Assembly: GCA_029070965.1 (NCBI GenBank)
Contig: JAIEBI010000005.1
Coordinates: 1 to 34,494, forward strand
Source of the DNA: Clostridiales bacterium
GTDB lineage: Bacteria; Bacillota; Clostridia; Christensenellales; Pumilibacteraceae
Direction: 5' to 3'
Length of the DNA: 34,494 nt
Positions 163-26,062 of the stretch are shown here, one piece after another (positions within the stretch are counted from its first letter, which is position 1; each line of letters starts with the position of its first letter). The position numbers were made by a program, and so were the translations under genes. A model generated the notes under the pieces. The model saw only the letters and a list, made by a program, of their open reading frames with translations. It made no database searches and was not told where the DNA came from.

Positions 163-200
163 AAATTTCCTCCATAATGAATTATTATATTGCTATGTAA

Positions 201-357: not shown

Positions 358-387
358 AAAAAGCTTCCCTATTAAGGAAAGCTTTTT
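358..387 (-). terminator. Rho-independent terminator after the large membrane protein gene
   Basis: Inverted repeat AAAAAGCTTCC (358-368) against GGAAAGCTTTTT (376-387) with one bulged base and a 7-nt loop. It ends in a T run on either strand, and lies just downstream of the minus-strand gene ending at 421. Confidence 0.75.
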
Positions 388-420
388 GCCGAAATATTAT
401 AGCTTTGTTTGTTCGTTACG

Positions 421-3400: not shown

Positions 3401-4290
3401 AGTATAACGTCGCCCAACCAACCGACAATGCCGCTCGCCCAGCCCTGCTTGGCGTCATACAAATACTTTTTTATCGCTTGATTTGCGGCGGACTGCAAGC
3501 CTATCCATACGGTTATCTCGGCGGACGAAGCTTTTATTTCCGCTTTGCCGTCAACCTTAGCGGACTTGGCGGTAAAGCGGATTTGTTTGAGCGCAACCAC
3601 CTTATCCAGCTTAATCATATCCGAAACGTCTTTTAACGAATCCAGCTTGACGGCTTTACTCAGCACCGATTTAAGCACGGAATTGACAAACGCCGCAAGC
3701 TGCCTGTCGTTAAGATTGAATATGTATTCGTCGGTAGCGGGATCGTCGGCGTCGTACTTGTTAAGCCGTTCGATGTCGATATTTTCGCGGTTGAGTACGT
3801 TCACTATCATGTCCGTAAAAATGTCCATGATATCCGATTCGCTTTTATTTTCCGCGCCGTCCGTCCCGTCGCCGTTGGCGTTTAACTGCGGCGCCGTACT
3901 ATCGCTGTTTAAGTATTTATCCACCGCGGCGTCCAGCGCTGACTGAAAATCTATTTCCGCGCTATCTTTGAGTAATATGTTTTTCTTTATTTCGCTGTAA
4001 AAGCTGTTGAGGTCCTTGCTGGTGTACGGACGGATAACAACGTCCTTATCGTCCGTCCAATATAAGTCGCTCAACACTCCCAAGGTGTCACCCATAGATA
4101 AGCCGAAAAGTTTTTTGGTATACTTGTCGCCCAAAATCCAGCCCGCTATGAATGCTCCCAAAAATAAAACAAGCATAACTATTACCGCAACCAAACAACA
4201 GGTGCAGCAACAGTTACGCTTTTTTTTCTTTTTTAGACCACCGTTTTGCTCGATGGTGTCTTCATCGGGAACAGCAACTTTTTTAGCCAT
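421..4290 (-). CDS. Large single-pass surface protein with polybasic, cysteine-rich membrane anchor, function unknown
   Basis: 1289 residues; I do not recognise the family. Residues 1-26 are charged and end in a run of lysines. A cluster of five cysteines (C27, C28, C29, C31, C32) sits at the edge of one transmembrane helix (about 33-53). The remaining 1230 residues should lie outside the cell by the positive-inside rule. They alternate amphipathic helices with strands of the type LYLTVSVPL and ILLTVTVDI, and I see at least three loosely repeated units of about 250-300 residues. Short spacers rich in Asp and Gly separate them. There is no signal-peptidase site, LPXTG motif or catalytic motif that I can identify. 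The gene stands alone with its own promoter and terminator. The start has only a weak Shine-Dalgarno (AGTGGGG). A structural role on the cell surface is a guess. Confidence 0.85.
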   Translation of the reverse strand: MAKKVAVPDEDTIEQNGGLKKKKKRNCCCTCCLVAVIVMLVLFLGAFIAGWILGDKYTKKLFGLSMGDTLGVLSDLYWTDDKDVVIRPYTSKDLNSFYSEIKKNILLKDSAEIDFQSALDAAVDKYLNSDSTAPQLNANGDGTDGAENKSESDIMDIFTDMIVNVLNRENIDIERLNKYDADDPATDEYIFNLNDRQLAAFVNSVLKSVLSKAVKLDSLKDVSDMIKLDKVVALKQIRFTAKSAKVDGKAEIKASSAEITVWIGLQSAANQAIKKYLYDAKQGWASGIVGWLGDVILPENLYLTVSVPLYGEDNYASVQINDMNTDERKRANKLINGIIKLINGDDSKTLDDVIDDFVGKIRPTLEKATENMDFTDAGKGTIKMDLLETVAQLASDNLAEGENLTKADFLYVLQALLSDKTEQLNSLQPFRYDNWYMVDGVPTYMATGGNADSKIDYEQKFIEQIEEKYAIDFGESKNLTEVLEMLGISLDGSDNTGIGSTDLLDKVNGNRFNALLDEDISNLKLNVTDRMLGAAFSGQMDKLLVGNADLQKLGMTLDALTFVKKTNPEKADHLYALLAVEVDVSGLIGAETGGQNSMVNKLVKGLMPDSILLTVTVDITRDRSITKDKAEFKINSSKNTDRVLDVIERLVPEIKLNDVSDKISTQLNDMLDQMDSKINIVLAATTYEYNTDIDKWLGDSGAIVLPDIFSVVADMVLVDEGGNKVVTSEQLQHVIRDLNNPATITATQPSGYGDFIGQVFDKYYLTKPEQLPEPQPPVTDFTGLIEYLKDFKTDKLRVYGRDGVAHDVRAMSALHPTMSAAELLLLLKDNMGDKDAIQSYNIVKVDIDDNMLAVTLSIRLSDLLTDAQQVQKLISATELYATATFHTDRITGDGTEDSPKGYGVELSINVKKQGENDVMDSDTYGAMLNIVKFFAKDFDIENQVKEFGVILYEQMQSLNASMGGSAENSLFTFTSNGLELTDFYTFLALKMKPELLDKHSNEDIRSTVQGLYTYDETAQNDSNFKVSDITFNPPSQETDPHTLNGSTAWTDDEAKTLYGNTHLDADFNGFLKRGVESISDSNDITVEQTMVLAKGDDREKVQTVRDWLNNGLGLTSDDVDYVSANNDYIAITFSMTMGSFVGGDGQGSQDASSMFPKKIYATVVYLYNAAAGDGEDKFSIVGDDRDGHLDGEAPLLVFNDMSPIEYDIMVQMMGVSPDSTDESKVNIVSIVMRGKEVLNGMTHIEYSIGGSTWSLDTTITFSATSDTANPPEDGMGKIYISRPVPSYGG

Positions 4291-4319
4291 ACAAACCCCA
4301 CTTTCGCTTCTTACACATG

Positions 4320-4348
4320 ATTATACACTACCGATAGACGTTTGTCAA
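4320..4348 (-). promoter_or_regulatory. Consensus sigma-A promoter of the large membrane protein gene
   Basis: TTGACA (4343-4348), 17-base spacer, TATAAT (4320-4325) on the minus strand: a perfect match to the sigma-A consensus. The predicted leader is about 23 nt. Confidence 0.85.
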
Positions 4349-4420
4349 TGGCAATACCTATTACTAATCTTATTCTAATGCGATTTTAATTTTTATGGAG
4401 TCGGTATGGCCGAATTTCGG

Positions 4421-4618
4421 CTACGCCTTGCACTCGTAGCCCGCGTTTTCCACTGCGGCTACCGCGGCGGCTACGTCAAAGTCGCCCTCTACCGTGGCGG
4501 TGCCGCTTGCCAAATCCACTTCTGCTTTGGTTACGCCCGCAACGGCGGCAAGCGCCTTTTGCACTCTTGCGGAGCAATGTCCGCAGCTCATGCCTTCTAC
4601 CTTGAGAACAGTTTTCAT
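4421..4618 (-). CDS. Possible internally initiated CopZ copper chaperone (65 aa, in frame within copA)
   Basis: The C-terminal HMA domain of copA begins with an ATG (4616-4618) preceded by a perfect GGAGGT (4625-4630) at a spacing of six bases. This is the strongest ribosome site near copA, whose own start has none. The product would be a 65-residue HMA protein with the GMSCGHC copper motif, about the normal size of CopZ, which carries Cu(I) in the cytosol and hands it to CopA. Seen: the ribosome site, start codon and complete domain in frame with copA and no stop between. Inferred: that ribosomes start here and yield free CopZ besides the fusion. The alternative is a relic of a former separate copZ joined to copA by loss of a stop codon. 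Confidence 0.5.
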   Translation of the reverse strand: MKTVLKVEGMSCGHCSARVQKALAAVAGVTKAEVDLASGTATVEGDFDVAAAVAAVENAGYECKA

Positions 4619-6937
4619 ATTATTACCTCCAATACCTTGGTCGTTTATTACAAGCTCATTATTGGCGCTACTATCCGTACCGCCGTTTTTGTGCTTTATC
4701 TTTTTCAGCTTTCGCGCCACGCGGGCGTCGTCAAACTTCATTGCCGTAAGGCGAAGGGCGTTACACACCACAAACAGCGACGAAAATGCCATTGCCGCCG
4801 CCGCAATCATCGGGTTTAGCGTAACGCCTATCGAAAACAGCACGCCCGCCGCAAGCGGTATGCCGAGCGCGTTGTATATGAACGCCCAAAACAGGTTTTG
4901 CTTAACGTTGCGCAGCGTCATGTGCGACACTGCCATAGCGCGAGGCACGTCGCCGAGGTCGGACTTGACAAGCACGACGTCCGCCGCCTCGATAGCGACA
5001 TCGGTGCCCGAGCCGATAGCTATGCCCACGTCCGCAGCTTTTAGCGCCGGGGCGTCGTTTATGCCGTCGCCCACCATTGCCGTCTTGCCCTGAGCTTTGA
5101 GCTTTTCCACAATATCCAGCTTACCGTCGGGCAAAACGTTGCAGTACACCTCGGTTATGCCGGCCTTAGCAGCTATGCGCTTTGCCTGTTCCTTGCCGTC
5201 GCCCGTAATCATTACTACGCGCGCGCCCACGCTTTTTATGCGCTCGATTGCAAGCGCGCTTGTCGGACGGATTTCGTCCTCTACCGTTATCGCGCCCAAA
5301 AGAACCCCGCGCTTGCAAAGATATACCGTGGCGGCGCTGTCGCCCTCGACCGTAACGCCGAACTCGCTCATAAGCCGAGCCCCGCCGAGCGCGTATTCGG
5401 TTCCGTCCACGTTGCCAACCATTCCGTACCCTATGCGGTACGTGCTGTCCGTGGCGGTCTTTTCCGCTATATTCTTTTCCTTTGCCGCTTGTATTATCGC
5501 GTTGGCAAGCGGGTGCGTTGAAGCGCGTTCGAGCGCAACGGCAATGCCGAGCACGGTATCTCCGTCAAACTCGCCGTATGCCTTTATCTCGGTTACGCGC
5601 GGCTTGCCCTCGGTTATGGTAGCCGTTTTATCCAGTGCGAATATTTCCACGCCTTCCAGTCCCTGCAACACCTCGGCGTTTTTTACAAGCACGCCGTGCG
5701 CCGCCGCTCGTCCTGTTCCCGCCATAACCGCGACCGGCGTTGCCAAGCCCAGCGCGCACGGGCATGATATTACAAGCACCGATATAGCCATTGTCAGCGC
5801 CTGCGCGATCGTGCCGATAAACAACCACACAATCAGCGTGACAAGCGCCAACACGCACACCGTCGGCACGAAAACCGCCGACACTTTGTCCGCTATCTTT
5901 TGTATGGGCGCTTTGCTTCCGCCCGCGTTTTCTATTAATTCTATTATCTTGCTGAGCGTCGTGTCCTTGCCCACCGACTGCGCGCGCATTTCAACTCTGC
6001 CCGTAATGTTGAGTACGGCGGAGGTTGCCGCGCTGCCGACAGTCGCTTCCTCGGGCATAGATTCTCCGGTGATAGCCGATTTGTCCAGCGTTGTCGAGCC
6101 GCTCGTAATAACGCCGTCGCACGGAATGTATTCCCCGGGCATAACGATTACGGTATCGCCCACAACTATGTCGTCTATGGATATAGTTTGCTGTTTGCCG
6201 TCGCGCAATACGGTGGCCGTTTGCGGGCGCAATTTAAGAAGCTTATCAACCTCCGAGCGCGTTTTGCCCTTTGACTTGGCTTCCAAAAACTTGCCGAGCG
6301 TGACAAGCGCGAGTATCATTGCGGCAGACTCGAAAAACAAGCCCATTGCCGTTTGCGCGCCGGCGTGAATATTGCCGCTTGCCATTTGCGAATTGATAAC
6401 AAACAACAGCACTATTCCGTAAATATACGACGCGCCGCTACCCAGCGATACAAGGGTGTCCATGTTAGCCGATTTGTGCAACACCGACTTGACTCCGCTT
6501 ACAAAAAACCTTCCGTTTATTATCAGCACCGGCGTGGTGAGAACAAGCTGTATGAGCGCGAATGACGACGGATTTTTGTGCGGGTCGAGCGACCCCATCG
6601 GAAAGTGAGCCATATGCCCCATCGAAAAATACATAAGCGGAATGAGAAACACGATAGACAGCACAAACCGCATTAGTAGCGTTTTGCTGTAATCATGCGC
6701 TTTATCGGCAGACGTGGTCGTTTTGGTGCTCTTGTCCCCCGCGACGGACGCGCCGTAGCCGACACGCTCCACCGCCGCGATAATATCCCCGTCGGGTATA
6801 TCCGCGTCCACCGTCAAACGGTTCAAAAGCAGGCTGACCTCGGCGCTTTTTACGCCGTCCAAGCCCTTAGCCGCCTTTTCCACATGCGCCGCGCAAGCCG
6901 CGCAAGTCATTCCTGTAATGTCGAATATCTTTTTCAT
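4421..6937 (-). CDS. copA: Copper-exporting P1B-1 ATPase CopA with C-terminal CopZ-like domain
   Basis: 838 residues. It exports Cu(I) across the cytoplasmic membrane using ATP. In order: N-terminal HMA domain (1-70, GMTCAAC), membrane helices, actuator loop with TGES (290-293), copper-site CPC (392-394), phosphorylation site (D436), an HP motif (THPLA), GDGINDAP hinge, and the YN and MxxSS residues of the last helices that are typical of Cu(I) pumps. A second HMA domain (GMSCGHC) follows a 25-residue linker at the C-terminus. Two things are odd. The normally invariant DKTGT reads DKTAT (A439, codon at 5621-5623). The C-terminal HMA has its own Shine-Dalgarno and ATG, so it may also be made as free CopZ. 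The start has no Shine-Dalgarno, and the promoter -10 box ends 9 nt upstream, so the mRNA is probably leaderless. No CopY or CsoR gene is nearby. Confidence 0.95.
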   Translation of the reverse strand: MKKIFDITGMTCAACAAHVEKAAKGLDGVKSAEVSLLLNRLTVDADIPDGDIIAAVERVGYGASVAGDKSTKTTTSADKAHDYSKTLLMRFVLSIVFLIPLMYFSMGHMAHFPMGSLDPHKNPSSFALIQLVLTTPVLIINGRFFVSGVKSVLHKSANMDTLVSLGSGASYIYGIVLLFVINSQMASGNIHAGAQTAMGLFFESAAMILALVTLGKFLEAKSKGKTRSEVDKLLKLRPQTATVLRDGKQQTISIDDIVVGDTVIVMPGEYIPCDGVITSGSTTLDKSAITGESMPEEATVGSAATSAVLNITGRVEMRAQSVGKDTTLSKIIELIENAGGSKAPIQKIADKVSAVFVPTVCVLALVTLIVWLFIGTIAQALTMAISVLVISCPCALGLATPVAVMAGTGRAAAHGVLVKNAEVLQGLEGVEIFALDKTATITEGKPRVTEIKAYGEFDGDTVLGIAVALERASTHPLANAIIQAAKEKNIAEKTATDSTYRIGYGMVGNVDGTEYALGGARLMSEFGVTVEGDSAATVYLCKRGVLLGAITVEDEIRPTSALAIERIKSVGARVVMITGDGKEQAKRIAAKAGITEVYCNVLPDGKLDIVEKLKAQGKTAMVGDGINDAPALKAADVGIAIGSGTDVAIEAADVVLVKSDLGDVPRAMAVSHMTLRNVKQNLFWAFIYNALGIPLAAGVLFSIGVTLNPMIAAAAMAFSSLFVVCNALRLTAMKFDDARVARKLKKIKHKNGGTDSSANNELVINDQGIGGNNMKTVLKVEGMSCGHCSARVQKALAAVAGVTKAEVDLASGTATVEGDFDVAAAVAAVENAGYECKA

Positions 6938-6946
6938 ACGGTTAAT

Positions 6947-6975
6947 ATTCTACTATATGAATTGTTTTATGTCAA
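6947..6975 (-). promoter_or_regulatory. copA promoter giving a near-leaderless mRNA
   Basis: TTGACA (6970-6975), 17-base spacer, TAGAAT (6947-6952). The -10 box ends 9 bases before the copA ATG, so transcription should begin about 3 nt upstream of the start codon. I see no CopY-type operator. Confidence 0.75.
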
Positions 6976-7073
6976 GCGAATTCCTACTGAATTAGTATGA
7001 ATTAAGTAGAAAGTAGCCGAAATGGAAGCAAAAACATATACTGGAAAAGACATATCGAAAAAGAGGTACATAC

Positions 7074-8093
7074 ATGGAAGATTATATCATTGCCGTGGGC
7101 GGCGCCGACGCAGGACTTACGCCGCCGATGCCGTTTGTCGGGCAAAGGTTGGACGGAAGTAAGCCTGCCGCGCTTGCGCGGCTCATGCTGGAGATAGCGC
7201 TAATTAGGTGCGGGTTTGACGTGTCGGACAGGCGCGCGTCGCTATCAGATCCACAAGAACTTATATACCAATCCAACCGCGTGGGCGCAAACGGCATAAT
7301 TGTAATATCGAGCGGCGCGTTCGGGTCGAGAAAGAGCTTCAACGACGTATGCGGCGGCAATGTAAAGTATGCCGTCGGGCGGCACGGCGGGCAGTCGCGC
7401 GAGCTTGCCGAAGATATTTGCGCCAAGCTGTGCAATATCAAACCGTGCCAAACGGCAACGTGCAATCACGAGTGGAACGGCGCGGCCTGTCCTGCCGTCG
7501 TCGTCGAAATGGGATATCTAACCAACTTCGACGAGGCCAAATTGATGCACGATCCCGACTATACACGCAACGTCGCCGAATATGCAACTATGGGCATATG
7601 TGAATATTTCGGCATGCCGTACGTTCCTAATTCCCCTACCGCGTACAAACATATGCGCGCGCAAATAGGAATGCGCGGAAAAAACGTAAAGCTTGTGCAA
7701 GCGGCGCTGTGCGCAAACGGATACGTCGTAGACATTGACGGCGTGTACGGCAAAAACACCGATATTGCCGTTAAGGAATTTGCCATAAACAACAACCGCC
7801 CCGACTGCGACGGAATAAACGAAACGTTACTGCACGATATGCTTTTTATCACGCCCGATTATATCCCCTCAACGTCCAAGCACAATAGCGTTTTGTATAT
7901 ACAGCGCAAGCTGATATCCAAGCTGTACAATTCACCTCAAAACGGCATAGCGGACCAAGACACCGTAACGGCGGTAAACGAATTTTTGACCGAAACGGAA
8001 AACACAAAGGCAATAGACGAAAGCGGCGGAATAAGCAAAACGGCAATGCAATTATTATCCGAAATCGGCGGCGGAAGACCGAGATTATTTTGA
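7074..8093 (+). CDS. N-acetylmuramoyl-L-alanine amidase-fold protein with peptidoglycan-binding repeats; zinc site apparently lost
   Basis: 339 residues. Residues 1-178 follow the Amidase_3 pattern: hydrophobic first strand, alternating helices and strands, and the closing motif VVVEMGYLTNFDEAKLM with the catalytic-type Glu at 145. Two peptidoglycan-binding-type segments follow (about 190-255 with GMRGKNVKLVQAALCANGY, and about 265-335). The zinc motifs are missing. The usual PGHGG is AVGGADAG (7-14), the ligand Glu of the second helix region is not present, and SIHAN reads ISSGAFG (78-84). The protein also lacks a signal peptide or membrane helix, so its location is unclear. It may be a non-catalytic wall-binding or regulatory relative of the amidases. 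The start has a GAGGT ribosome site; it is transcribed divergently from copA. Family placement is good, loss of activity is inferred. Confidence 0.75.
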   Translation: MEDYIIAVGGADAGLTPPMPFVGQRLDGSKPAALARLMLEIALIRCGFDVSDRRASLSDPQELIYQSNRVGANGIIVISSGAFGSRKSFNDVCGGNVKYAVGRHGGQSRELAEDICAKLCNIKPCQTATCNHEWNGAACPAVVVEMGYLTNFDEAKLMHDPDYTRNVAEYATMGICEYFGMPYVPNSPTAYKHMRAQIGMRGKNVKLVQAALCANGYVVDIDGVYGKNTDIAVKEFAINNNRPDCDGINETLLHDMLFITPDYIPSTSKHNSVLYIQRKLISKLYNSPQNGIADQDTVTAVNEFLTETENTKAIDESGGISKTAMQLLSEIGGGRPRLF

Positions 8094-8115
8094 TTAATTC
8101 TGAATTCGGAATTAA
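8094..8115. repeat. AT-rich palindromic intergenic repeat
   Basis: TTAATTC and GAATTAA arms directly after the stop codon of the amidase-like gene. Similar AATTAAGAATTC-type palindromes occur at 8835-8852, 13611-13631 and 27173-27186, and as ends of the element at 26326-26493. Confidence 0.5.
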
Positions 8116-8214
8116 ATAATACGAAAACAGTGGCGTCGAGATATTTCTAACGAAACGACATTATTCGGGTGTAATATAAAACGAATCATTAAGCAAACAC
8201 ACGACAGTAAAAGG

Positions 8215-8243
8215 TTGACATAGTGTTTAGAAAGGTGTATAAT
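8215..8243 (+). promoter_or_regulatory. Consensus promoter of the TetR-family gene
   Basis: TTGACA (8215-8220), 17-base spacer, TATAAT (8238-8243). The leader is about 30 nt and has no clear Shine-Dalgarno. I see no strong inverted repeat overlapping it that would mark autorepression. Confidence 0.85.
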
Positions 8244-8279
8244 AAGAATATATAAAATGAAAGATGACGGCGACAGATT

Positions 8280-8840
8280 ATGCAAGATTCAAAAAAGAAA
8301 ACGACAACAAATAAAATAAAACAATGCTTGACCGATATGCTGCAATCATGCCCGATTGACGATATAACGGCGACCGAGCTGTGCAAGCGTTCGGGGGTCA
8401 ATCGTGCCACGTTTTACTATCACTACAATTCGGTGCAGGACGTGCTGGCGGAAATAGAAACGCAGTTGGAATTTGAGTTTATGCAATGGATGGCGCAACC
8501 TACCATAAGCGGCATGCCCGAAAAGAGCTTTTACGTCACATTTTTCGAGTTTGTTTCGCGCAACGTCGGCATATGCCGCATGCTGTTGAACACTCGCCGC
8601 CCGACGGACGACTTTATGGTACGCGCATTGGAAGCGGGACGTACAAAGGTTGTTGCCATTATGAGCAAAATGTTCCCGCACTGCCCCGCCGCCAAAATCG
8701 ACTACTATTACATATTCGTGTCCAACGGATTTTTGGGACTTTTGGGCTACTGGCTGAACAGCGGAATGAGAGAAAGCGTAGCCGACATAGCCGAGATTGG
8801 CGAACGCATAACCATGATGGGCGTTGCGTACCTCAATTAA
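8280..8840 (+). CDS. TetR/AcrR-family transcriptional regulator
   Basis: 186 residues, the usual size of the family. The N-terminal three-helix DNA-binding domain is clear (about 8-56), with the recognition part GVNRATFYYHY typical of TetR proteins. The C-terminal two thirds is a mostly helical ligand or dimer domain with no recognisable signature. The protein is expected to act as a homodimer repressor that lets go of DNA on binding a small molecule. Its target is not evident: it is flanked by the amidase-like gene (same strand) and the convergent SdpI-like membrane protein gene, and no drug pump lies beside it. An upstream ATG at 8257 is out of frame. A terminator follows closely. Confidence 0.9.
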   Translation: MQDSKKKTTTNKIKQCLTDMLQSCPIDDITATELCKRSGVNRATFYYHYNSVQDVLAEIETQLEFEFMQWMAQPTISGMPEKSFYVTFFEFVSRNVGICRMLLNTRRPTDDFMVRALEAGRTKVVAIMSKMFPHCPAAKIDYYYIFVSNGFLGLLGYWLNSGMRESVADIAEIGERITMMGVAYLN

Positions 8841-8858
8841 TTCGGAATTATTCAAATA

Positions 8859-16853: not shown

Positions 16854-17399
16854 TTAGGCTGCCTCTGCCGCAGAAACCGTAATTTCGTAAGTAGCGTCCA
16901 TATCGTCGGGATTGCTGGAAACAAGAATTACATTGATTGTTGCTGTATTAGACGTCAAAGTCAATGCAATGTCGCCGGTTCCAAAAAGCGTCCAGCCATT
17001 TGTTGTAAGGTCGGATACTTCATCCGTCTTATCAGGGGCCGTAGCAGAGCCAAGTTTATAATAAAGTGTAAGATTGCCGGTATTTTCTGTCAATTTCATC
17101 GAGAAATCGTAGTTTTCCGCAGCAGCTCCGGTGCCCTGAGTGTATGTTACAGTAAAGGACTGCATTGTGGTCATTGTGGTTGTATCGACACCAAACGTTT
17201 GGTCATACGGAATTAACAATAAGTTATCGGTTTGCGCTACTGCCAATACACCTGCATCGGTAACAATATTGCCAACGGTACCGGTTGTGTCAGCGGGAGT
17301 AACAGTGCCGCCATTCCACGCCGCAAACGATACAGCGCCGATGCCCGCGATAGCGGCAACCGAAGCCGCTATGATAAGGGATTTAACTGTCTTTTTCAT
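16854..17399 (-). CDS. Small TasA-like secreted protein A (SipW-type signal peptide)
   Basis: 181 residues. The N-terminus (MKK, hydrophobic stretch with SLIIAASVAAIAGIGAVSFA, then AWNGG) matches the pattern of SipW-processed proteins such as TasA and camelysin, with cleavage probably after SFA. The mature part of about 155 residues is Thr-, Asn- and Ala-rich, strand-forming and cysteine-free, as expected of a fibre subunit or biofilm-matrix protein. It is a paralogue of the next gene (17523-18047): same signal, nearly the same ribosome leader AAAGGAGAAAAC, similar size. The mature sequences have diverged, so family identity rests on the signal peptide and the neighbouring SipW-type peptidase. 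A terminator follows at 16715-16747. Confidence 0.8.
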   Translation of the reverse strand: MKKTVKSLIIAASVAAIAGIGAVSFAAWNGGTVTPADTTGTVGNIVTDAGVLAVAQTDNLLLIPYDQTFGVDTTTMTTMQSFTVTYTQGTGAAAENYDFSMKLTENTGNLTLYYKLGSATAPDKTDEVSDLTTNGWTLFGTGDIALTLTSNTATINVILVSSNPDDMDATYEITVSAAEAA

Positions 17400-17522
17400 G
17401 TTTTTGTTTTCTCCTTTTAAGAAAATTTATTATTGATTTTGTTTTTATTTTTAACAATCCAGATACCCTGCTATCGGAATTGTAAAAATCATGTTTGTGC
17501 ACAAAGCGAATTTAGGTTTAGA

Positions 17523-18047
17523 TTATGCCGCCGAGAATGTCAACGTGATGTCGGCATTCATAGCATCAGTGCCGGTAGCTACCATATAAACGTACACTAC
17601 GCCATCTTCGTCGGGCGTAATTGTTCCACCATCAATTTCGTTAGTCGTTTCGGGCGTAGTAGCATTCGGCGCAGAGTCAAGCCAATACAATTTTGCTGCG
17701 CCTACCTCGGTACCGGTACCCTTCTTTAACGTCGCTGCAAGTGAATACGTCGGCGTCGCACCACCGGTAGCGTCAGGCACGGAAAGCGTAAACTTCCAAT
17801 AGTTAACGGCACCGGTTACTGTTCCTTGGTCGGCAGGAACCAATGCTTTAAGATTACTGTCATCATCAAGCGAAGCTGCATCAGCTTCAACCGATAATTC
17901 GCCGAGAGTTTGAATCGCTCCGGTTGCACCCGTAAATTCAACGGGTTCCGTGGCATCACCAGCCCACTTAGCGAACGAAACGCCGGCAACGCCGACAACT
18001 GCGGCAACGGAAGCTGCGATGATGAGTCCTTTGATTGCTTTTTTCAT
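17523..18047 (-). CDS. Small TasA-like secreted protein B (SipW-type signal peptide)
   Basis: 174 residues. The signal region has GLIIAASVAAVVGVAGVSFA followed by KWAG, nearly the same as its downstream paralogue and with the A-x-W end also seen in the giant protein at 18169-24033. The mature part is strand-rich with no cysteine, and ends in NADITLTFSAA, the same kind of strand that closes the paralogue (EITVSAAEAA). A strong GGAG ribosome site lies in a leader nearly identical to that of protein A. Expected to be exported by Sec, cut by the SipW-like peptidase and assembled outside the cell. A polymer role is inferred, not seen. Confidence 0.8.
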   Translation of the reverse strand: MKKAIKGLIIAASVAAVVGVAGVSFAKWAGDATEPVEFTGATGAIQTLGELSVEADAASLDDDSNLKALVPADQGTVTGAVNYWKFTLSVPDATGGATPTYSLAATLKKGTGTEVGAAKLYWLDSAPNATTPETTNEIDGGTITPDEDGVVYVYMVATGTDAMNADITLTFSAA

Positions 18048-18168
18048 GATTTGTTTTCTCCTTTAAGAAAATATTTTTTTGTTTTTTATTTTACCTGACG
18101 CCCTCGCGCCAATTAAAACCGTTGTATCGCTGTTGTTTACCGTCTACTCGCCCGACTGAGGGATGTCC

Positions 18169-21100
18169 TTATCCAAGAGAAATTGTGCAAAGCTTAGGAT
18201 TATTGTTATTGTCCGATTTCCAATTAACAGAAATGTTATAAGTCCTGCCATTAGTCACCGTAACACTTGTAGCATTCGTATCATTCTCATTCTCACTACG
18301 CCACTGCTGACCACCTTGCTTGAAGAAGAAGTACATTCTCTTGATAGTAGTAGGCACCCAGATTGTCTTATCAGAACTGAAATCAATACCATCGCCGACA
18401 TTGTTTGACGGGTTTGTATTGGTGGTAGAATAAGTTAATTTAATATCCGAAATATTGCCCCAACTATTCGCCCATGTCGTTGCGTTTAACTTTGCCATAC
18501 TGCTTTCAACATTATATGTATCGCCAAGATTTATCCCACTAACGTATATCAAATAGCGCGAATGTTCTGTTCTTGTTCCTGTGGTGTCTTGTGTAAAGAT
18601 AATAGTTGTTATACCTGTCTTGGTAAGGTCAAAATAGTACTTGTTATTACCCATGGAAATCATTTTGTCACGATTATTCCATTTCTCATCGTCCGCTACA
18701 CTACCACCTGTAACAGTTCCTACGCCTGTACCACCCCAAGCGTGTATGTGGTAATCATACCCCGTGGTACCAGTCCAGTTGGTGACGTTAAGTACTATGC
18801 GGTACGCTACCGCCGTCCAATGCGCATATATGGTTGTATCAGTATCGAATGTCGTCGTAGCGGAAACCTCTTCACCATCTTCAGTAAACCAGCCGTCGAA
18901 CGAATGTAAATCTTTGGTCGCAGTATTGGGAAGCGTAGTGAGCGCAGTCCCTTTGGTAATGGTTTCCGATTCCGTAGCGCACGTACCTTCACCGGCGTCA
19001 AACGTTACGGTAACAGTGTCGGCAGGCTTTTCCGTCCACTGCGCAGTAAGCGTGGTATTAGCACTGAATACCGTGGTACCAAGACTGGATTGAAGTATAA
19101 CGGTGTCGGTGTTACCTACCTTCCAGCCATTGAATATATAGTCTTCCCGTTGCTTCAACGTAGGAACAGAGCCGGACGGAATACGACCGTTTATGTCGGT
19201 AATAATCGTATTGCCTGCGGGAGCGTTTGTATTCCATTCGCCACCGTTAAGGTCAAACGTTATAGTATACACGTCAACCCACTTGGCTACAAGCTTGACA
19301 GCGCTGTTTATAGGAGTATTGAAGTTGAACGCCGTGTCCTCGCCTTCTTTATACCAACCGCCGAACGCCTTGCCAGCGGGCGCGTTGTCGGGTGCGGCAA
19401 GCTCTTCTGCCTTTCCGCCCTTGTCAATCGACTGCGTTTGAACATCTGTTCCGTCGCTCCAAGAGCCGCCGTAGGCGTCGAACGTAACGGTATACTGCAC
19501 TTTTTCAGCGAAATGCTGATTGCTGCCTATGTTGTATATATGTCCGTTTTTGAGCTGATTATCGTCGCTTTGATTAACAAGGACGTCGCCGGTCAAATTA
19601 TCGCCGCCGTTATTTTTGTTCAATATAATGCCTTTTACGTCACCCATATTCCAAGATGAACAGTCGATGAACTTGTTATAATCAATCGACCTGCCTGGCC
19701 ATGCGCCAAACAAATTTTCGTTGGACTGGTTCCAAATATGGATATTAGCAGGATCGTTCAGCGAGGACGCGTCAAGTACGATTATACCGTCGTTAAACCA
19801 TAAACCCATGCGGTTTGTGCCTACGATAGTTACGTTGGCTATCGTAGCCTTATACGTGTAAGTCTCGCCAAAGGTTAGACCACTGACCGAAACGACATAG
19901 CGCGATATCTCTGTATACGTGCCGTGCTGATACTGAATGAACGTTATACTCGATATGTCGTCGACGCTATCCAATTCGTAAGTGTATGTAGTGCCGGAAC
20001 CGGTCATTTCGTAGCCCGAGTCCGTTCCGCCTATACTGATGCGGTATGTGTAAGCATTGGCATGGTTATAGCCCGGCCATTCGGACGCATCAAGCTCTAT
20101 GTAAACCTTGTTCACGTCCCTAACCTTCCAAACGGCGTATAGCGTTTTAGGTCCGGTTATGGCAGTGCCGAAGCTGAACGGTTCGCCTTTGGGCGTTTCG
20201 CTCCAATGCATGAATACTTGGCCGTCGGGCGCGTTGTCGGGCGCGGCGTATGCCGTAACTGTTTGACCCTTGCCGAGCGTGACATCTTGCTCTCCTTTGC
20301 CGTCGCTCCACGTACCCTCGTTTCCGTCAAACGTGACAGTGACTGCCTCCAACCACTGCGCGGTCAGTGTCATACTGTCGGTTACCTCGTTGGCGAAATT
20401 CCACGCGGTCGCACCATTATACCAGCCGTTAAATATATAGTCGGCGCGGGTGGGGTCGGTAGGCTTGATAACCTTTTCGCCGGACCATATCGTTTGAGCG
20501 TCAACCGCGCTGCCGCCGTCAGAATCGAACGTTACTGTTACCGGAGTCTTTGCGGTGAGAGTGTGCTCCTTAATGATGTATATATTGCCGTTTTCGAGAG
20601 ACGGATATGCGACGCCATCAGTGGTATTGCCGGGCGTTATATCTCCCGTCACACCGCTGCCGTTTTTCACCAAAATTATTCCGTATACGGCCGAAAGCCC
20701 AACATTATACTTTTTAAACTCACCATACTTAATAGTGTCGCCGCTCCATCCTGCGGTGATATCTCCGCCGATGCCTTTCCACATGTAAATTTGATTAGGA
20801 CGGTCATCCGCAGACCAAGCCGATGCGTCAAGCACTATAACGCCGTCGTTAAATACCAAACCGATTTGATTGTACAATTGGCTATTAAACGTCAGGCTTG
20901 CAACGTTCATCGTAAACGGCGTTGATTCGGCACCGAGAGCCAGGCCGGCAACTGAATCGGGTTGATAACGACCCAATTCTATCATAGTGTCGTTGCTATC
21001 CAAAGTGACTATAAATCCGCTCGGCACTTGGTCCAAATCATAATAGAACTTGCCGCCGCCCATATGCGTCAACTGCTTACGTTCTGTCCACGCGCCCGTC

Positions 21101-24033
21101 AACGTCTGATCGTCACTATTCCAAGCGTGAATATGGTACGTGTTACTGCTGTTTACGTTGTACAGCGCGGAAGCGTCTATCACTATACGCACCTTGTCGG
21201 TAAAGCGCGCGTATACGGTTGTATCGGCATCGAAGATTTCGGTCGCTGTAACAATCGGCATTCCGCCTTCCGTAAACCAGCCGTCGAAATGATGGTAACC
21301 TGTGGATGCTATTTCAGGCCATTCGGTGACACTGCTGCCTTTGACGATTTCTACTTTTTGAGTTGTGCCGTCGCCTAAGTCAAACGTTACCGTAACCGCG
21401 TCGAGCCACTTGGCATACAGCGTAAACGGCGCAGTGACCGCACTATCAAAGTCGTACGGTTCGCCCGTGCAACCTTCATTGTCGTACCAGCCGTCGAATA
21501 TATGTTTTGCATATTTAGGATCGGGTTGTATCTTGGACACGGGAGTTCCTTCCGCAACGGTCACTTCGTTTTGCACGCCCTCGTCGAACGAGCCGTCGCC
21601 TGCGTCGAACGTTACAGTAAACATATTAGCCGCCCACTTTGCGTAGAGCGTAATATTGCCGGTGACAATCGTGTTAAAGTCGTACGCGGCGCCGGTGCAA
21701 GCCTCGTTGGTGTACCAGCCGCCAAAGTTCAACGTTCCGTTGGTCGGGTCGGTAGGTTTGGTCGCACATTGTCCGAACTTTACCTTTTGGTCGGAATAAT
21801 CGCCCGCACCGGTACCGCCGTTAAGCTCAAACTTAACCGTAAACTCGGCCGCCGTATCCGCAGTGCTTATGTACAGCTCGTCGACCAAGAAATTGAATGC
21901 CGCTACGCCGTACCAATAATCATCTTGTGACGGCGCTTCTTCATTGTCGTCGACCTTTTTGGTTTCGCCGGTAACAAGATTTACGTACCAGCCGCTTCTT
22001 GCAGCAGTGTATCCGGGGGTAACTTTACCCTTTAACCTAAACGTATACTCGCCCGTATAGGGAATATATATGTTTATATTACCCAAATCGGTTACGGCGG
22101 AATTTATGTTGTAATACGGTCTACCGTCTACTGTACCGTCATACAGTCCGTCAGAGGCGATAATCTTTTTGGCTACAAAGTACGCAGTTGCGGCGTTTGC
22201 CTCCGCTCCACCCTCTTGCCTGCGGTAACCCGTTGAATCGAGCAGGTAAGGCTTGACAAGCGAGCCCTTCGTCAAGTTGAGCGTAATGGTATAGTCGATA
22301 GCTATATTAGGATAACTGACCATTATACCGTTTTGGTTTATTGTGGAAACGTCGGCAGCGGTGATTGCGGGATTGCCGCTCATCTCGGTGGTGCGGCTGG
22401 GATCCCACGACCATACGTCGTTTATAAGTCCACCCAAGTACAAGCCCCAAGGCTTGCCGTAACCCTCTTCGTAACGCTGCCAGTTGTTCGTATTGCTCGC
22501 ATGAACAGTGAGCGTAAAGTCTAAATCTTCTGCCGTAGCATCAGCTACTTCGAGTACTATCTCTATATCCAATGCAAAATACTGCTGATATCCGTCACCG
22601 AAAAACAGCACTACGTACGTACCGTCGTCGTAGTGGTCAATCATATGGTTATCCTGCGCTTCACCTTCTAACCCCTCGGATACGTCATGCTTGTTGCCGT
22701 GCGCAAAAATAGCGTAGCGCCCTTCGCTACCGTCGGGGTCGGGCTTGTTGTGGCTGAAATCGGGACCGAGCCTCATTTCATTGGAATCGTAGTTGTAAAT
22801 ACGCGGCGCGGGTGTTATAAATCCATCCGTAGGCACGCCGTTTTCGTCTGTATCTCTACGGGTCAACGTTACCGACTTAACCACAACGTTATACGGACTT
22901 GCCGTCGTACCGTTTATCTTGCAGTCGGACACAGAAAATTCGAGGTACGCGATGGAGTTGTCGGCTGCACCGTCCTCGTTTTTACGCGAAACGCAAACGT
23001 AGTTGTTGTATACAAATTGCCCGCTATCGTTTTTTGTGATTTTGGCGTTTACCTCACGTACTATCTGCTCGCCCATTTTTTCGTCAGCAGCCGACCCTTC
23101 GTTCCATGTTGTCGAACCTGAAAGCGTAGGCGGGGTACTACCGTCGTTAGTCGGTATTGTGCCTATCGTGACGTAATTATCTTTTTTGTCCGCATAACCG
23201 CCAAGCATTAAGTTGGCGCTTTGATCAGTCCATCCGCCATTTGTAAATATAACCTTGGTTTCGGCAAACTCTCCGACTTTAACAGCCGTAGTACCGGCAT
23301 CGGCCATTGCTTTGGGATTTCCTCCACCAATGGAATCTCCGGTGTTATTACCGGTAGTCCAATTTGCGTTATAGTAATATTTAGTGCCGCCATTCTCCGA
23401 CCATATATATGCACACGGAGTAGTGAAACCATCAAGTTTATAGTGTATGGTTTTTTCTTCGTCAATATCCGAAAACTTAACCGTAAACGAATACTCATAG
23501 TCGGATGGATTAGGCGCCACATAATCAGTTCGATTTATCCAAAAATAGCGAGCGTCTTCTGCAAAAACATAGTAAAAATCATAAAGACCTTCTGTTTTTA
23601 TCGTATACTTTCCGTCATCAAGAGTTAACCAATCACTTCTATCCTGTTGGCTATTACCATTTATATCTTCGGGCGTAGTGCCATTATACACCGCCAAAGT
23701 ATCACCGACATGCAATAATACGCCTGTCAGTTTCTTTTCGGTTTCATTGTTCTCCGTCATTGCATAGTAATCGGATATATTATTTGTATTGTTTGCGGGC
23801 GTGACTTGCAAGTAGTATGTGCCCGAATTCAATGCGGGAGGAACAACCTCCTCTCTTGTATTGTACAAAGGATATTCAACATAGAAAAGACCCGACTCGC
23901 CCGATACCTCGGCGGTGGTCTCGTCGCTGCCGCTCCAAAGCGCAAGCGACACGGAAAATGCCGCGATACAAAACAGTATCACGCACGCAATCGTCGCCAA
24001 TATAATAAACCTCAAACGACTGACTCGTTGCAT
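18169..24033 (-). CDS. Giant surface protein: InlB B-repeats alternating with CBM26-like modules
   Basis: 1954 residues. A long signal sequence (about 1-35) ends in SVSLALWSG, the A-x-W form shared with the two TasA-like proteins. Residues 40-720 form a large unique region of strands and aromatic residues. From about 728 I count eight InlB B-repeats (Flg_new type; VTFD.xGG then GWY then TLYAKW) near 728, 804, 877, 1163, 1229, 1514, 1588 and 1673. Pairs of modules like starch-binding CBM26 stand between them, near 947, 1063, 1308, 1416, 1744 and 1864; the motifs are VLDAS, IHIWNQSNENLFGAWPG and YHIHAW. There is no LPXTG, no C-terminal membrane anchor and no catalytic motif. It is probably a glycan-binding adhesin or matrix scaffold. 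How it stays on the cell is unknown; joining a TasA-like fibre is one option. Confidence 0.85.
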   Translation of the reverse strand: MQRVSRLRFIILATIACVILFCIAAFSVSLALWSGSDETTAEVSGESGLFYVEYPLYNTREEVVPPALNSGTYYLQVTPANNTNNISDYYAMTENNETEKKLTGVLLHVGDTLAVYNGTTPEDINGNSQQDRSDWLTLDDGKYTIKTEGLYDFYYVFAEDARYFWINRTDYVAPNPSDYEYSFTVKFSDIDEEKTIHYKLDGFTTPCAYIWSENGGTKYYYNANWTTGNNTGDSIGGGNPKAMADAGTTAVKVGEFAETKVIFTNGGWTDQSANLMLGGYADKKDNYVTIGTIPTNDGSTPPTLSGSTTWNEGSAADEKMGEQIVREVNAKITKNDSGQFVYNNYVCVSRKNEDGAADNSIAYLEFSVSDCKINGTTASPYNVVVKSVTLTRRDTDENGVPTDGFITPAPRIYNYDSNEMRLGPDFSHNKPDPDGSEGRYAIFAHGNKHDVSEGLEGEAQDNHMIDHYDDGTYVVLFFGDGYQQYFALDIEIVLEVADATAEDLDFTLTVHASNTNNWQRYEEGYGKPWGLYLGGLINDVWSWDPSRTTEMSGNPAITAADVSTINQNGIMVSYPNIAIDYTITLNLTKGSLVKPYLLDSTGYRRQEGGAEANAATAYFVAKKIIASDGLYDGTVDGRPYYNINSAVTDLGNINIYIPYTGEYTFRLKGKVTPGYTAARSGWYVNLVTGETKKVDDNEEAPSQDDYWYGVAAFNFLVDELYISTADTAAEFTVKFELNGGTGAGDYSDQKVKFGQCATKPTDPTNGTLNFGGWYTNEACTGAAYDFNTIVTGNITLYAKWAANMFTVTFDAGDGSFDEGVQNEVTVAEGTPVSKIQPDPKYAKHIFDGWYDNEGCTGEPYDFDSAVTAPFTLYAKWLDAVTVTFDLGDGTTQKVEIVKGSSVTEWPEIASTGYHHFDGWFTEGGMPIVTATEIFDADTTVYARFTDKVRIVIDASALYNVNSSNTYHIHAWNSDDQTLTGAWTERKQLTHMGGGKFYYDLDQVPSGFIVTLDSNDTMIELGRYQPDSVAGLALGAESTPFTMNVASLTFNSQLYNQIGLVFNDGVIVLDASAWSADDRPNQIYMWKGIGGDITAGWSGDTIKYGEFKKYNVGLSAVYGIILVKNGSGVTGDITPGNTTDGVAYPSLENGNIYIIKEHTLTAKTPVTVTFDSDGGSAVDAQTIWSGEKVIKPTDPTRADYIFNGWYNGATAWNFANEVTDSMTLTAQWLEAVTVTFDGNEGTWSDGKGEQDVTLGKGQTVTAYAAPDNAPDGQVFMHWSETPKGEPFSFGTAITGPKTLYAVWKVRDVNKVYIELDASEWPGYNHANAYTYRISIGGTDSGYEMTGSGTTYTYELDSVDDISSITFIQYQHGTYTEISRYVVSVSGLTFGETYTYKATIANVTIVGTNRMGLWFNDGIIVLDASSLNDPANIHIWNQSNENLFGAWPGRSIDYNKFIDCSSWNMGDVKGIILNKNNGGDNLTGDVLVNQSDDNQLKNGHIYNIGSNQHFAEKVQYTVTFDAYGGSWSDGTDVQTQSIDKGGKAEELAAPDNAPAGKAFGGWYKEGEDTAFNFNTPINSAVKLVAKWVDVYTITFDLNGGEWNTNAPAGNTIITDINGRIPSGSVPTLKQREDYIFNGWKVGNTDTVILQSSLGTTVFSANTTLTAQWTEKPADTVTVTFDAGEGTCATESETITKGTALTTLPNTATKDLHSFDGWFTEDGEEVSATTTFDTDTTIYAHWTAVAYRIVLNVTNWTGTTGYDYHIHAWGGTGVGTVTGGSVADDEKWNNRDKMISMGNNKYYFDLTKTGITTIIFTQDTTGTRTEHSRYLIYVSGINLGDTYNVESSMAKLNATTWANSWGNISDIKLTYSTTNTNPSNNVGDGIDFSSDKTIWVPTTIKRMYFFFKQGGQQWRSENENDTNATSVTVTNGRTYNISVNWKSDNNNNPKLCTISLG

Positions 24034-24076
24034 TTTCCCTCTATGCTTTCCCCCACTTTAATTACAGTGTATTATA

Positions 24077-24106
24077 ATTATACACCTTATATATGTTTAA
24101 AGTCAA
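24077..24106 (-). promoter_or_regulatory. Promoter of the giant surface protein gene
   Basis: TTGACT (24101-24106), 18-base spacer, TATAAT (24077-24082); a second TATAAT follows at 24071-24076. The leader is about 40 nt and ends in a GAGGG close to the ATG. Confidence 0.7.
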
Positions 24107-24154
24107 TACCTATTTAAAAAAATTTACAGGATTTTTGTATATGTGACATATATG

Positions 24155-24187
24155 AAAAATCCGTTCTTTTCGTCGAACGGATTTTTT
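24155..24187 (-). terminator. Rho-independent terminator after the SipW-like gene
   Basis: TCCGTTC (24160-24166) and GAACGGA (24175-24181) around an 8-nt loop, flanked by A and T runs on both sides. It separates the sipW-like gene from the giant gene, which has its own promoter. Confidence 0.85.
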
Positions 24188-24196
24188 TAATCAATA

Positions 24197-26023
24197 TTAT
24201 TCGTCTATTTTGTTGAGCAATTCGCGGTCGGCCTCGATACGTTTTAGCTTGCGAATGGATTTTTCGCGGGACTTGGCGAGCTTGCGCTCCGACAATACCA
24301 GTTCTCTATCCTCGGGCGTGAGCGAGTTGAGGAATTGCTCCTGCTCTTGCTTTCTGCGCGCCTCCGCCGCCCTGCGCTTGGCTTTTTGCTCCTCTGTAAG
24401 CGGCTTTCTCTTCTTTTTGGGCGGGTTTTGCGCCTTATGCGCCGCAACTTTAAGCTGTTCCTCGGGAGTGAGCGGCGCCGTTTCGGTAAGCAAGTTGCGC
24501 AGCCGCGCCGCGCGTTTGAGTTCCTTCTCCGCCGTCATCTCTCTATATTTCAAGTACGCTTCGCGGGACTGATCGCGCGCTTTCTTTTCGGCAAGCTTTC
24601 TCCTGCGCTCTTCCTTTTGCTCCTCGGTGAGCGGCTTTCTTGTGCGCTTGGGTTTTTGCTCTTCTTCCGTCGCCTTGTCGACTTGCGTGGGCTGTTCGAT
24701 TTGTTTGGGCTTTTCTTCCTCCTGCTTGGCATGCTCGGGCAGCGCCGCCGCTTTTTGTTCCTGCTTTGCCGCGCCGATTGCGACCTGCGTCGGGATTTGC
24801 TTGGAGAAGGCTTGTGCCTGCTCCCCGCTCAACAATACGTCCGGCCCTATCTTTGCGGGCTGGGGAAGCTCGGGATATTCCACGTTCTTTTCAAGCGGCT
24901 GCCCCTCGAAAAATTCGGGTACTGTCGGCATACTCATAGCGCCCATAGCTTCGATATTGGGTGCGATGTCCGTAGAAATGCGTACGCCTTGCTGACACAG
25001 TATAATTCCGTCGGGAGTGTTGACCGGCGTGAGCATTATGTTCTTGCCTCCCGACATGGTGGTGAGTATGAGCGTTTGTCCGTCCTCGGCTTGCCTGAGC
25101 GTCGCGCCCGCCGACAGCGCCGCAGCAAGCGAGCCCGGGGTGTCGGGCGCGGGCAGAGTATCTAATATCGCGGCCGTTTCCGCCGTTTTCGGAAGCTCGA
25201 ACGTGGACGCGCGTATGAATGCATTTAACCTTTCGGCTACCTGTTTGCTTTCCGCATGGTTTTTCGGCTCCTCGCTGACCATGCCCAGCACGTCCATAAC
25301 CGCGACTATCTCGTGAATGTTGTCGTATCTAAGGCTGACGCCGCCAAGCGCCGTCGCGCTCTTTTTGAGCGCCGCTTTTTCCAGCGCCTTGCGTTCCTCC
25401 GTCTTGTTGACGTAGTGTATGGTTATCCACGCAACAACCACTATGAAAATAAAGAATATAAGTACGCTCGCGCCCAGCGCAGACGCGAAAAATCCAAACA
25501 GTGCGCCGAAAAATCCGCACTTTTTGCCGGTGTATATTCCGACCACGTCCTCAAATGCGGGATGGACTCCGTCCACGCCCTTGGCGTTATCGCCGCGCGT
25601 TGTGAACGTTACTTTGCCGTTTTTGTCGGTGGATATGCCCACCACGCGGTGGGTCAACAGTATGCTCTCCCCGCTCGCGTTTTTGGTTTTGAACGTAATG
25701 ACCGTGCCGTCCTTGGCGGTCTCCGACGAGCTCGCTTTTATTTCCTTGACCGAACTCGGCTTTTTGCCGACAATCATACTGCCCTTTGGTATGGTAGGCT
25801 CCATGGAATCGGACACGATAGAAAACAGTCGGTAATCGCCGAACGTCGTATAGTAGTCGTCCATGAACATTGTCAACAATGCATTTACTATAAGCGCAGT
25901 TAAAATGGCAATCAATAAGAGTACGCCGAATATACTAAACCCGCGCAATACCTTATTGTGTTTTTTTACAGGCTGCTGACTAACAGTTTCCCCCGCCTCG
26001 TTTTGTTGTACTTCATTTTCCAT
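24197..26023 (-). CDS. SipW-type signal peptidase (S26B) with long charged cytoplasmic tail
   Basis: 608 residues from the ATG at 26023. A membrane helix (about 28-53) precedes the catalytic SDSMEPTIPKGS (Ser73), the His of LLTHRVVGI (H125, where bacterial type I enzymes carry Lys) and TRGDNA (Asp145), so it is of the ER/SipW Ser-His class. A second helix lies at about 180-205. Typical SipW is near 190 residues; here about 400 more follow, very rich in Lys, Glu, Arg and Gln, with two copies of KPLTEEQK and predicted coiled coils, on the cytoplasmic side by topology. It probably processes the two TasA-like proteins and the giant repeat protein. An in-frame start at 26062 is rejected because it overlaps the promoter. 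No Shine-Dalgarno; -10 box 10 nt upstream, so likely leaderless. Confidence 0.88.
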   Translation of the reverse strand: MENEVQQNEAGETVSQQPVKKHNKVLRGFSIFGVLLLIAILTALIVNALLTMFMDDYYTTFGDYRLFSIVSDSMEPTIPKGSMIVGKKPSSVKEIKASSSETAKDGTVITFKTKNASGESILLTHRVVGISTDKNGKVTFTTRGDNAKGVDGVHPAFEDVVGIYTGKKCGFFGALFGFFASALGASVLIFFIFIVVVAWITIHYVNKTEERKALEKAALKKSATALGGVSLRYDNIHEIVAVMDVLGMVSEEPKNHAESKQVAERLNAFIRASTFELPKTAETAAILDTLPAPDTPGSLAAALSAGATLRQAEDGQTLILTTMSGGKNIMLTPVNTPDGIILCQQGVRISTDIAPNIEAMGAMSMPTVPEFFEGQPLEKNVEYPELPQPAKIGPDVLLSGEQAQAFSKQIPTQVAIGAAKQEQKAAALPEHAKQEEEKPKQIEQPTQVDKATEEEQKPKRTRKPLTEEQKEERRRKLAEKKARDQSREAYLKYREMTAEKELKRAARLRNLLTETAPLTPEEQLKVAAHKAQNPPKKKRKPLTEEQKAKRRAAEARRKQEQEQFLNSLTPEDRELVLSERKLAKSREKSIRKLKRIEADRELLNKIDE

Positions 26024-26033
26024 GATTATGACT

Positions 26034-26062
26034 ATTATACCACCGTTTATATTATATGTCAA
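26034..26062 (-). promoter_or_regulatory. Promoter of the sipW-like gene giving a near-leaderless mRNA
   Basis: TTGACA (26057-26062), 17-base spacer, TATAAT (26034-26039): perfect consensus. The ATG at 26023 is only 10 nt downstream of the -10 box. Confidence 0.8.

What the first reader, a model, noticed from the sequence alone, without database searches (positions are those of the whole stretch)
16854..26023. SipW-type export locus: two TasA-like proteins, a giant InlB/CBM26-like protein and their likely signal peptidase
Three neighbouring secreted proteins share an unusual signal-peptide end (SFAAW, SFAKW, SLALW), and the next gene is a Ser-His signal peptidase of the SipW class. In Bacillus, SipW matures TasA and TapA for biofilm fibres. 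Here the set includes a 1954-residue glycan-binding-like protein and no TapA, so it looks like an unreported version of a dedicated matrix or fibre assembly system.
Basis: partly seen in the sequence, partly recalled or inferred. Interest (0 to 1): 0.75.

Follow-up and report, generated by a model that had tools for sequence, protein, structure and literature searches.

The report
Fibre-export peptidase with conserved inner tail
A gut bacterium's gene cluster exports fibre-like surface proteins with its own dedicated cutting enzyme; such clusters are known, but this enzyme carries an unusually well-kept inner tail that survives even in relatives that lost the cutting site and the exported proteins.

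Summary
Minus strand: a SipW/ER-type signal peptidase, a 1954-aa secreted protein and two small secreted proteins, all three with an A|x-W signal end. Of 22 genome matches to a DNA pattern for that end, only these three are signal peptides. The set recurs in the genus: 18 of 20 genomes carry the tailed peptidase, 17 the small proteins, 16 both. In 37 small proteins only S-x-A-x-W and one downstream Pro are invariant. Trp is P2', and Trp plus Pro mirrors TasA's F29/P62 "proline box", so donor-strand fibres are likely, though the fold comparison was inconclusive and no TasA/camelysin/BsaA model matches. "No TapA" is not new (B. cereus, Clostridium perfringens), and giant SipW substrates occur elsewhere in the order. 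The giant has its own promoter, behind a terminator hairpin.

The unexpected part is the peptidase's ~400-aa cytosolic tail. It is found only in this genus (0 of 54 other genomes of the family). Its region A is better conserved than the catalytic domain in 100 of 105 pairs. Two sister genomes lost the catalytic His (one also Ser) and the small proteins, yet keep region A (115 of 116 identical). I read this as a bifunctional SipW: a new variant of a known kind.

The parts
26034..26062 (-). Promoter of the peptidase gene: TTGACA-17-TATAAT, TG before the -10; the ATG lies about 10 bases after the -10, so the mRNA would be leaderless or nearly so
   Evidence: 12 of 12 consensus; conserved in all 7 of 7 loci aligned (G015 not included)
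24197..26023 (-). SipW/ER-type signal peptidase, 608 aa, two predicted membrane stretches (residues 23-56 and 169-208)
   Evidence: TIGR02228 over cut-off; Ser73/His125/Asp145; hydropathy
25424..25918 (-). Peptidase domain (residues 36-200)
   Evidence: alignments
24854..25369 (-). Cytosolic tail region A (residues 219-390); residues 276-390 are the most conserved
   Evidence: 100 of 105 pairs more identical than the peptidase domain; genus-only; retained in G009 (whole) and G005 (from about residue 276; contig break)
24200..24568 (-). Tail region B (residues 486-608), Lys/Arg-rich, predicted long helices
   Evidence: pLDDT mostly 65-91; alignment
24155..24186 (-). Terminator-like hairpin between peptidase and giant gene (12 pairs)
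   Evidence: -15.3 kcal/mol, z -5.2; sequence; not listed by the consensus scan, presumably because its T run is part of the stem
24077..24106 (-). Own promoter of the giant gene, followed by a conserved near-palindrome (ATTACA-ATACAC-TGTAAT in relatives)
   Evidence: 11 of 12 consensus; conserved in 5 of 5 loci aligned (G010 and G006 not included)
18169..24033 (-). 1954-aa secreted protein, signal end SLA|LW, 8 InlB-type B-repeats and weak CBM26-like stretches; no C-terminal membrane stretch or sorting signal
17523..18047 (-). Small TasA-like secreted protein, signal end SFA|KW, L-V-P-A-D-Q box
16854..17399 (-). Small TasA-like secreted protein, signal end SFA|AW, L-I-P-Y-D-Q box
16723..16751 (-). 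Intrinsic terminator that closes the unit before secA
   Evidence: 13 pairs plus a T run; -19.8 kcal/mol, z -6.9

Best explanation
A two-sided SipW system. Outside: the peptidase cuts the giant and the small proteins after Ala, leaving x-Trp at the new N-terminus. The freed N-terminal strand of each small protein is donated to the next subunit, Trp packing against the conserved Pro of a neighbour as F29/P62 do in TasA, giving a sortase-independent fibre. The giant, which carries the same signal end, is a fast-changing adhesive (perhaps starch-binding) tip, base or cross-linking subunit. Inside: the long cytosolic tail of the peptidase has a separate conserved job, most likely reporting or regulating matrix production or docking the peptidase to the export machinery, and can persist without proteolysis or the small substrates. 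Shown here: gene set, signals, conservation, co-occurrence, loss of the dyad together with the small proteins, constraint on the tail. Inferred: cleavage site, fibre formation, role of the giant, role of the tail.
For: Signal ends specific to this locus. One SipW in the genome. Tailed peptidase in 18 of 20 genus genomes, small proteins in 17 of 20, both in 16. In 37 small proteins only S24, A26, W28 and P71 are invariant, with W-to-P spacing 36-50; TasA has F29 and P62 (PMC10151520, passages). A bridging protein in another genus of the family has A-F-W and L-V-P-F-D at +41. E. coli LepB cleaves the TasA site, with its aromatic P2', very inefficiently (PMC10269814, passages). The two genomes with a broken dyad (G009 His to Cys; G005 Ser to Thr and His to Cys) are the only two that carry the tailed peptidase but no small protein; they are sisters (100/100), nested beside G016, which has both. 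Tail A: G5-G9 115/116 identical with dN 0.012 at dS 0.74, against 78/102 and dN 0.146 for the peptidase domain. Against G9, mean identity is 0.34 for the peptidase domain and 0.73 for tail A; for all other pairs 0.64 and 0.74.
Against: No TasA/camelysin/BsaA model matches the small proteins: Pfam 0 of 37 for PF12389, NCBIfam 0 of 37 for TIGR04088/04090. The model of the small protein is of middling confidence (pLDDT 63.8), and fold matches are weak (best Z 6.5; TasA not among the rows shown). G013 keeps a giant and one small protein but no detectable SipW. The loss of the dyad is one event, not two. The peptidase domain of G5/G9 is still under purifying selection (dN/dS about 0.15). The tail has no known family or fold.
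Confidence: 0.6

Rival explanations
1. The small proteins and the giant are separate monomeric surface or secreted glycan-binding proteins that merely share a SipW-type signal; no fibre is built.
For: No fibre family model matches; the giant has B-repeats and CBM-like stretches; the fold match is inconclusive.
Against: Copy number of 1-4 small paralogues, most of them next to the peptidase, the invariant Trp/Pro pair and the L-x-P-x-D box fit a protomer interface better than glycan binding.
Confidence: 0.2
2. The tail is only a localisation or stability arm (for example binding SecA, the Sec channel or ribosomes) and carries no signal; the peptidase-dead copies serve as placeholders.
For: In one group of genomes the gene sits near secA; the tail is rich in charged helices.
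Against: In the other group the gene sits elsewhere; the G5/G9 lineage keeps tail A almost unchanged although the small substrates are gone, so assisting their export cannot be its only job.
Confidence: 0.25
3. The giant is a starch or mucin adhesin of a polysaccharide-use system, and its neighbourhood with the fibre genes is for shared processing only.
For: Weak CBM26/CBM20 matches in the window giant and 2 of 6 relatives scanned; the giant has its own promoter.
Against: A giant or a fragment of one lies with the small genes at most loci where both can be read. CBM matches are all under the curated cut-off.
Confidence: 0.25
4. The tail is kept by chance or by alignment artefact: a recently acquired domain that has had little time to diverge.
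For: It is restricted to one genus.
Against: Synonymous divergence in tail A is close to that in the peptidase domain (G5-G9 0.74 against 0.98; W-G8 1.04 against 1.17), so age is similar and amino-acid constraint differs.
Confidence: 0.05

Closest known systems
Clostridium perfringens sipW-bsaABCRSD (PMC7395162, passages read)
   Same: SipW gene first, TasA-like filament protein(s) exported by it, no TapA, no sortase needed, a Clostridia host
   Different: No long SipW tail mentioned in the passages read, a two-component system in the operon, no giant repeat protein mentioned there; BsaA model TIGR04090 does not match here
Bacillus subtilis tapA-sipW-tasA (PMC9674648, PMC10151520, PMC4551309, passages read)
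   Same: Ser-His SipW; aromatic residue at P2' of the substrate; Pro partner; donor-strand fibre (inferred here)
   Different: Trp instead of Phe, no TapA recognised, a giant substrate, a 400-aa cytosolic tail
Bacillus cereus sipW-tasA / capP / calY (PMC13082335, passages read)
   Same: Two small fibre proteins, no TapA, sortase-independent
   Different: CapP is the accessory chaperone there; here a B-repeat giant takes the third place
B. [quoted passage not shown] 2012; only the title seen, in reference lists; details recalled)
   Same: A second, non-proteolytic function of SipW in biofilm control (recalled)
   Different: Here the second function would sit in a long soluble tail absent from Bacillus SipW (tail absence in Bacillus is recalled)

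Membership tests
ER/archaeal-type signal peptidase I (TIGR02228; SipW class) | Profile match over the curated cut-off | tested here: met
   68 bits, cut-off 51.85
ER/archaeal-type signal peptidase I (TIGR02228; SipW class) | Ser-His catalytic pair with conserved Asp | tested here: met
   S73, H125, D145 in the window and 15 other rows of 17; one row (G009) lacks His; the G005 fragment, not in that alignment, lacks both
Bacillus SipW equivalog (NF046067) | Score over the equivalog cut-off | tested here: not met
   66.8 bits, cut-off 190
TasA/camelysin (PF12389) or BsaA (TIGR04090) family | Profile match of the small proteins | tested here: not met
   0 of 37 members listed for these models at E up to 0.1 (25 of 26 Pfam families were shown); 0 for the two window proteins at E up to 10 in NCBIfam
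SipW-dependent signal peptide (TIGR04088) | Profile match of the signal peptide | tested here: not met
   No match in the own genome nor in 37 small proteins
TasA/camelysin (PF12389) or BsaA (TIGR04090) family | Jelly-roll or Ig-like beta sandwich | tested here: inconclusive
   Seven-stranded beta model, pLDDT 63.8; best Z 6.5, many rows are donor-strand pilus subunits or their chaperones; TasA not among the rows shown
TasA/camelysin (PF12389) or BsaA (TIGR04090) family | Aromatic P2' residue plus interface Pro (F29/P62 in TasA) | tested here: met
   W28 and P71 invariant in 37 of 37; TasA residues from PMC10151520; that P71 is the interface Pro is inferred
TasA/camelysin (PF12389) or BsaA (TIGR04090) family | Forms fibres by donor-strand exchange | not testable with these tools
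   Needs protein
TapA-dependent fibre system | tapA gene present | not tested
   No TapA-like gene was recognised beside the locus; no TapA model was searched genome-wide

The most novel reading that the evidence does not exclude
In this genus SipW is first of all a membrane-spanning regulatory protein: its cytosolic tail A does an essential job (for example sensing export of fibre subunits and setting matrix gene expression), the peptidase domain is the replaceable outer part, and at least one lineage has turned it into a pseudo-peptidase receptor after losing its small substrates.
Probability: 0.35. Interest if true: 0.72.

Novelty: new variant of a known kind. Interest (0 to 1): 0.5.

Why it matters
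It extends SipW/TasA-type fibre export to a genus of uncultured Clostridia whose proteins have drifted past every current TasA, camelysin and SipW-signal model tried. It also gives a natural experiment, loss of the catalytic dyad and the small substrates with the tail kept, that makes the old idea of a bifunctional SipW testable by asking what the tail binds.

Tried and rejected

Fold search with the small-protein model: no match at E 0.001 or better, best Z 6.5, tied rows; TasA is not in the listed rows, which says nothing either way. Fold search with the tail model: nothing usable (pTM 0.21; best E 0.75).

PDB sequence searches with the small-protein profiles, the tail profile and two SipW substrates of other genera gave no credible relative.

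'TapA missing makes it new' was rejected after reading passages of PMC7395162 and PMC13082335. 'One operon' was rejected because of the terminator hairpin and conserved promoter before the giant gene. A sortase route for the giant was considered: the only LP.T[GA] match is LPNTA, and there is no hydrophobic C-terminus.

The neuraminidase model NF052328 on the giant matches the repeats and is far under its cut-off.
Full report
OBSERVATION. The peptidase begins at the ATG at 26023: 'MENEVQQNE' or a close variant is found at that place in the near relatives, and a promoter with 12 of 12 consensus bases ends 10 bases before it. The three other proteins end their hydrophobic N-terminus in V-S-[FL]-A-x-W. 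A DNA pattern for that end has 22 matches in the own genome, against 18 for the reversed control; only the three here are N-terminal signal peptides.

WHAT THE GENES ARE. The peptidase passes TIGR02228 (archaeal/ER type) but not the Bacillus SipW equivalog cut-off. Ser73, His125 and Asp145 are in place. Hydropathy gives membrane stretches at 23-56 and 169-208 (no dedicated topology predictor was run), so residues after about 209, 400 in all, should lie in the cytosol, as the C-terminus of SipW does (recalled). The giant has 8 InlB-type B-repeats and a sub-threshold CBM26 match; of 6 relatives' giants scanned, 4 have the repeats, 2 a sub-threshold CBM26 match and 1 of these also a sub-threshold CBM20 match; 2 match no family. 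The two small proteins match no Pfam or NCBIfam family at the thresholds used.

TRANSCRIPTION. The peptidase has its own conserved promoter and would be leaderless or nearly so. A 12-pair hairpin (-15.3 kcal/mol, z -5.2) follows it, then a second conserved promoter for the giant. A strong terminator closes the unit after the last small gene, before secA. So the likely units are peptidase alone and giant-small-small. These are sequence predictions only.

CONSERVATION OF THE SET. The genus has 20 genomes held, the own one included. The tailed peptidase is in 18, small proteins in 17, both in 16; G013 has a small protein and a giant without a peptidase, G014 has neither. Of the 16, adjacency can be read in 12 (own, G001, G002, G003, G004, G008, G010, G012, G015 across a contig break, G016, G018, G019); in G006 giant and small genes lie about 16 kb away on the same contig; in G007, G011 and G017 they are on other contigs. 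Two chromosomal places are used: between upp and secA, or near a polysaccharide-flippase-like gene and pgk (these two names recalled from sequence, no family search run on them). Between the window and G004 secA is 95% and upp 99% identical, the peptidase 87%, the small proteins and giant 45-58% (partly over part lengths): the exported parts change fastest.

SMALL PROTEINS AND TASA. In 37 small proteins of the genus, down to 22% identity, only S24, A26, W28 and P71 are invariant; L69 is in 36, D73 in 31 (N in 5), Q74 in 32; W-to-P spacing is 36-50. In TasA, F29 (the P2' residue; PMC10269814) packs with Q232 and F200 round P62 in the fibre interface, the most conserved part of TasA-like proteins (PMC10151520, passages). 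A protein in another genus of the family (L101) has A-F-W and L-V-P-F-D at +41, a bridge between the two patterns; of 9 SipW neighbours outside the genus checked this way, 7 show some [LIVM]xP at +34 to +69 and 2 none, so the Pro test is loose there. The AlphaFold model has seven strands and middling confidence. Foldseek found nothing at E 0.001; the second look gave Z up to 6.5, and many rows are donor-strand pilus subunits or their chaperones (CsuA/B, CfaB, FimC), but Z under 8 may be only a common arrangement. I therefore say 'works like TasA', not 'is TasA'.

THE TAIL. It occurs once per genome apart from paralogue and contig-end fragments and is found only in this genus: 0 of 54 other genomes of the family. 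Among 15 full-length orthologues, region A (219-390) is more identical than the peptidase domain in 100 of 105 pairs. In G009 the catalytic His is Cys; in G005 Ser is Thr and His is Cys (the G005 gene is split over two contigs and only residues up to about 146 and from about 276 are seen). These two genomes have no small protein. Of 25 pattern matches in them, 13 lie in a frame of 90 aa or more, and I count none as a signal end of a secreted protein: one VSLAVW follows a charged stretch, and two ITLAVW (one per genome, orthologous) lie near the start of a 265-aa frame with more hydrophobic sequence around, which I take for a membrane protein. The two are sisters (100/100) next to G016, which has an intact peptidase and substrates (8 genomes, one gene), so this is one loss. 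After it, region A stayed 115/116 identical (dN 0.012, dS 0.74) while the peptidase domain went to 78/102 (dN 0.146, dS 0.98). Against G009 the mean identity is 0.34 (peptidase) and 0.73 (region A); among all other pairs 0.64 and 0.74. The peptidase domain of this lineage is still under some constraint (dN/dS about 0.15), so it is a retained domain, not debris. Region A matches no Pfam family convincingly in any of 17 members scanned, nothing credible in the PDB, and its model is too poor for a fold search. Region B is a set of long charged helices. In a second, paralogous locus of G004 and G016 the peptidase carries a different cytosolic middle part, which suggests that inner domains are exchanged in this family.

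MECHANISM. Most likely: dedicated cutting of A|x-W precursors, donor-strand fibres of the small proteins, the giant as a variable adhesive subunit, and a tail with a separate inner function. The first step follows from LepB's poor cleavage of the TasA site (PMC10269814) and the SipW precedents. Fibre and giant roles are inference. The tail's independence from the small substrates is supported by the rate and loss data; what it does is unknown, and regulation is my best guess, in line with the title of Terra et al. 2012 (title seen in reference lists only).

COMPARISON. Known kin: C. perfringens sipW-bsaABCRSD (PMC7395162), B. subtilis tapA-sipW-tasA (PMC9674648, PMC10151520), B. cereus sipW/tasA/calY/capP (PMC13082335); passages of each were read. 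In the order, 31 of 297 genomes sampled match the SipW-signal model TIGR04088, several in long proteins, and SipW neighbours of 849 and 2789 aa with SipW-like signals were read. Searches of the paper library returned no listed title on a tailed SipW or on this genus; that library lacks most subscription papers, so this is weak evidence of absence.

VERDICT. A real, conserved SipW-type export locus, new variant of a known kind; the tail with its pseudo-peptidase lineage is the part worth following.

Noticed in passing
L037 (G004:C17), 12231-15738; L044 (G016:C2); L125 (G003:C44): A second SipW locus in three genomes of the genus; in G004 and G016 the peptidase carries a different cytosolic middle domain, and small A-x-W proteins lie beside it.
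   Followed up: partly
window about 24061-24078, minus strand, and the same place in L034-L036, L041: A nearly invariant element just after the -10 of the giant gene, ATTACA-ATACAC-TGTAAT in relatives, palindromic; possible operator or 5' hairpin.
   Followed up: partly
L118 (G013:C13) 127-3278: G013 keeps a short giant (signal end TFCKW, Cys for Ala) and one small protein but no peptidase gene was found; the signal of the giant may be decaying.
   Followed up: partly
L092 (G031:C73) 1-9226: In another genus of the family a short SipW is followed by a 2789-aa protein with a SipW-like signal (CFAAF).
   Followed up: no
L119/L105 (G006:C17, about 29-45 kb): About 16 kb with several large ORFs of unknown nature separates the peptidase from the giant; looks like an inserted island.
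   Followed up: no
window 4421-6937: A copper P-type ATPase ends in a fused CopZ-type metallochaperone domain (NF047957 over its cut-off, residues 777-836).
   Followed up: no
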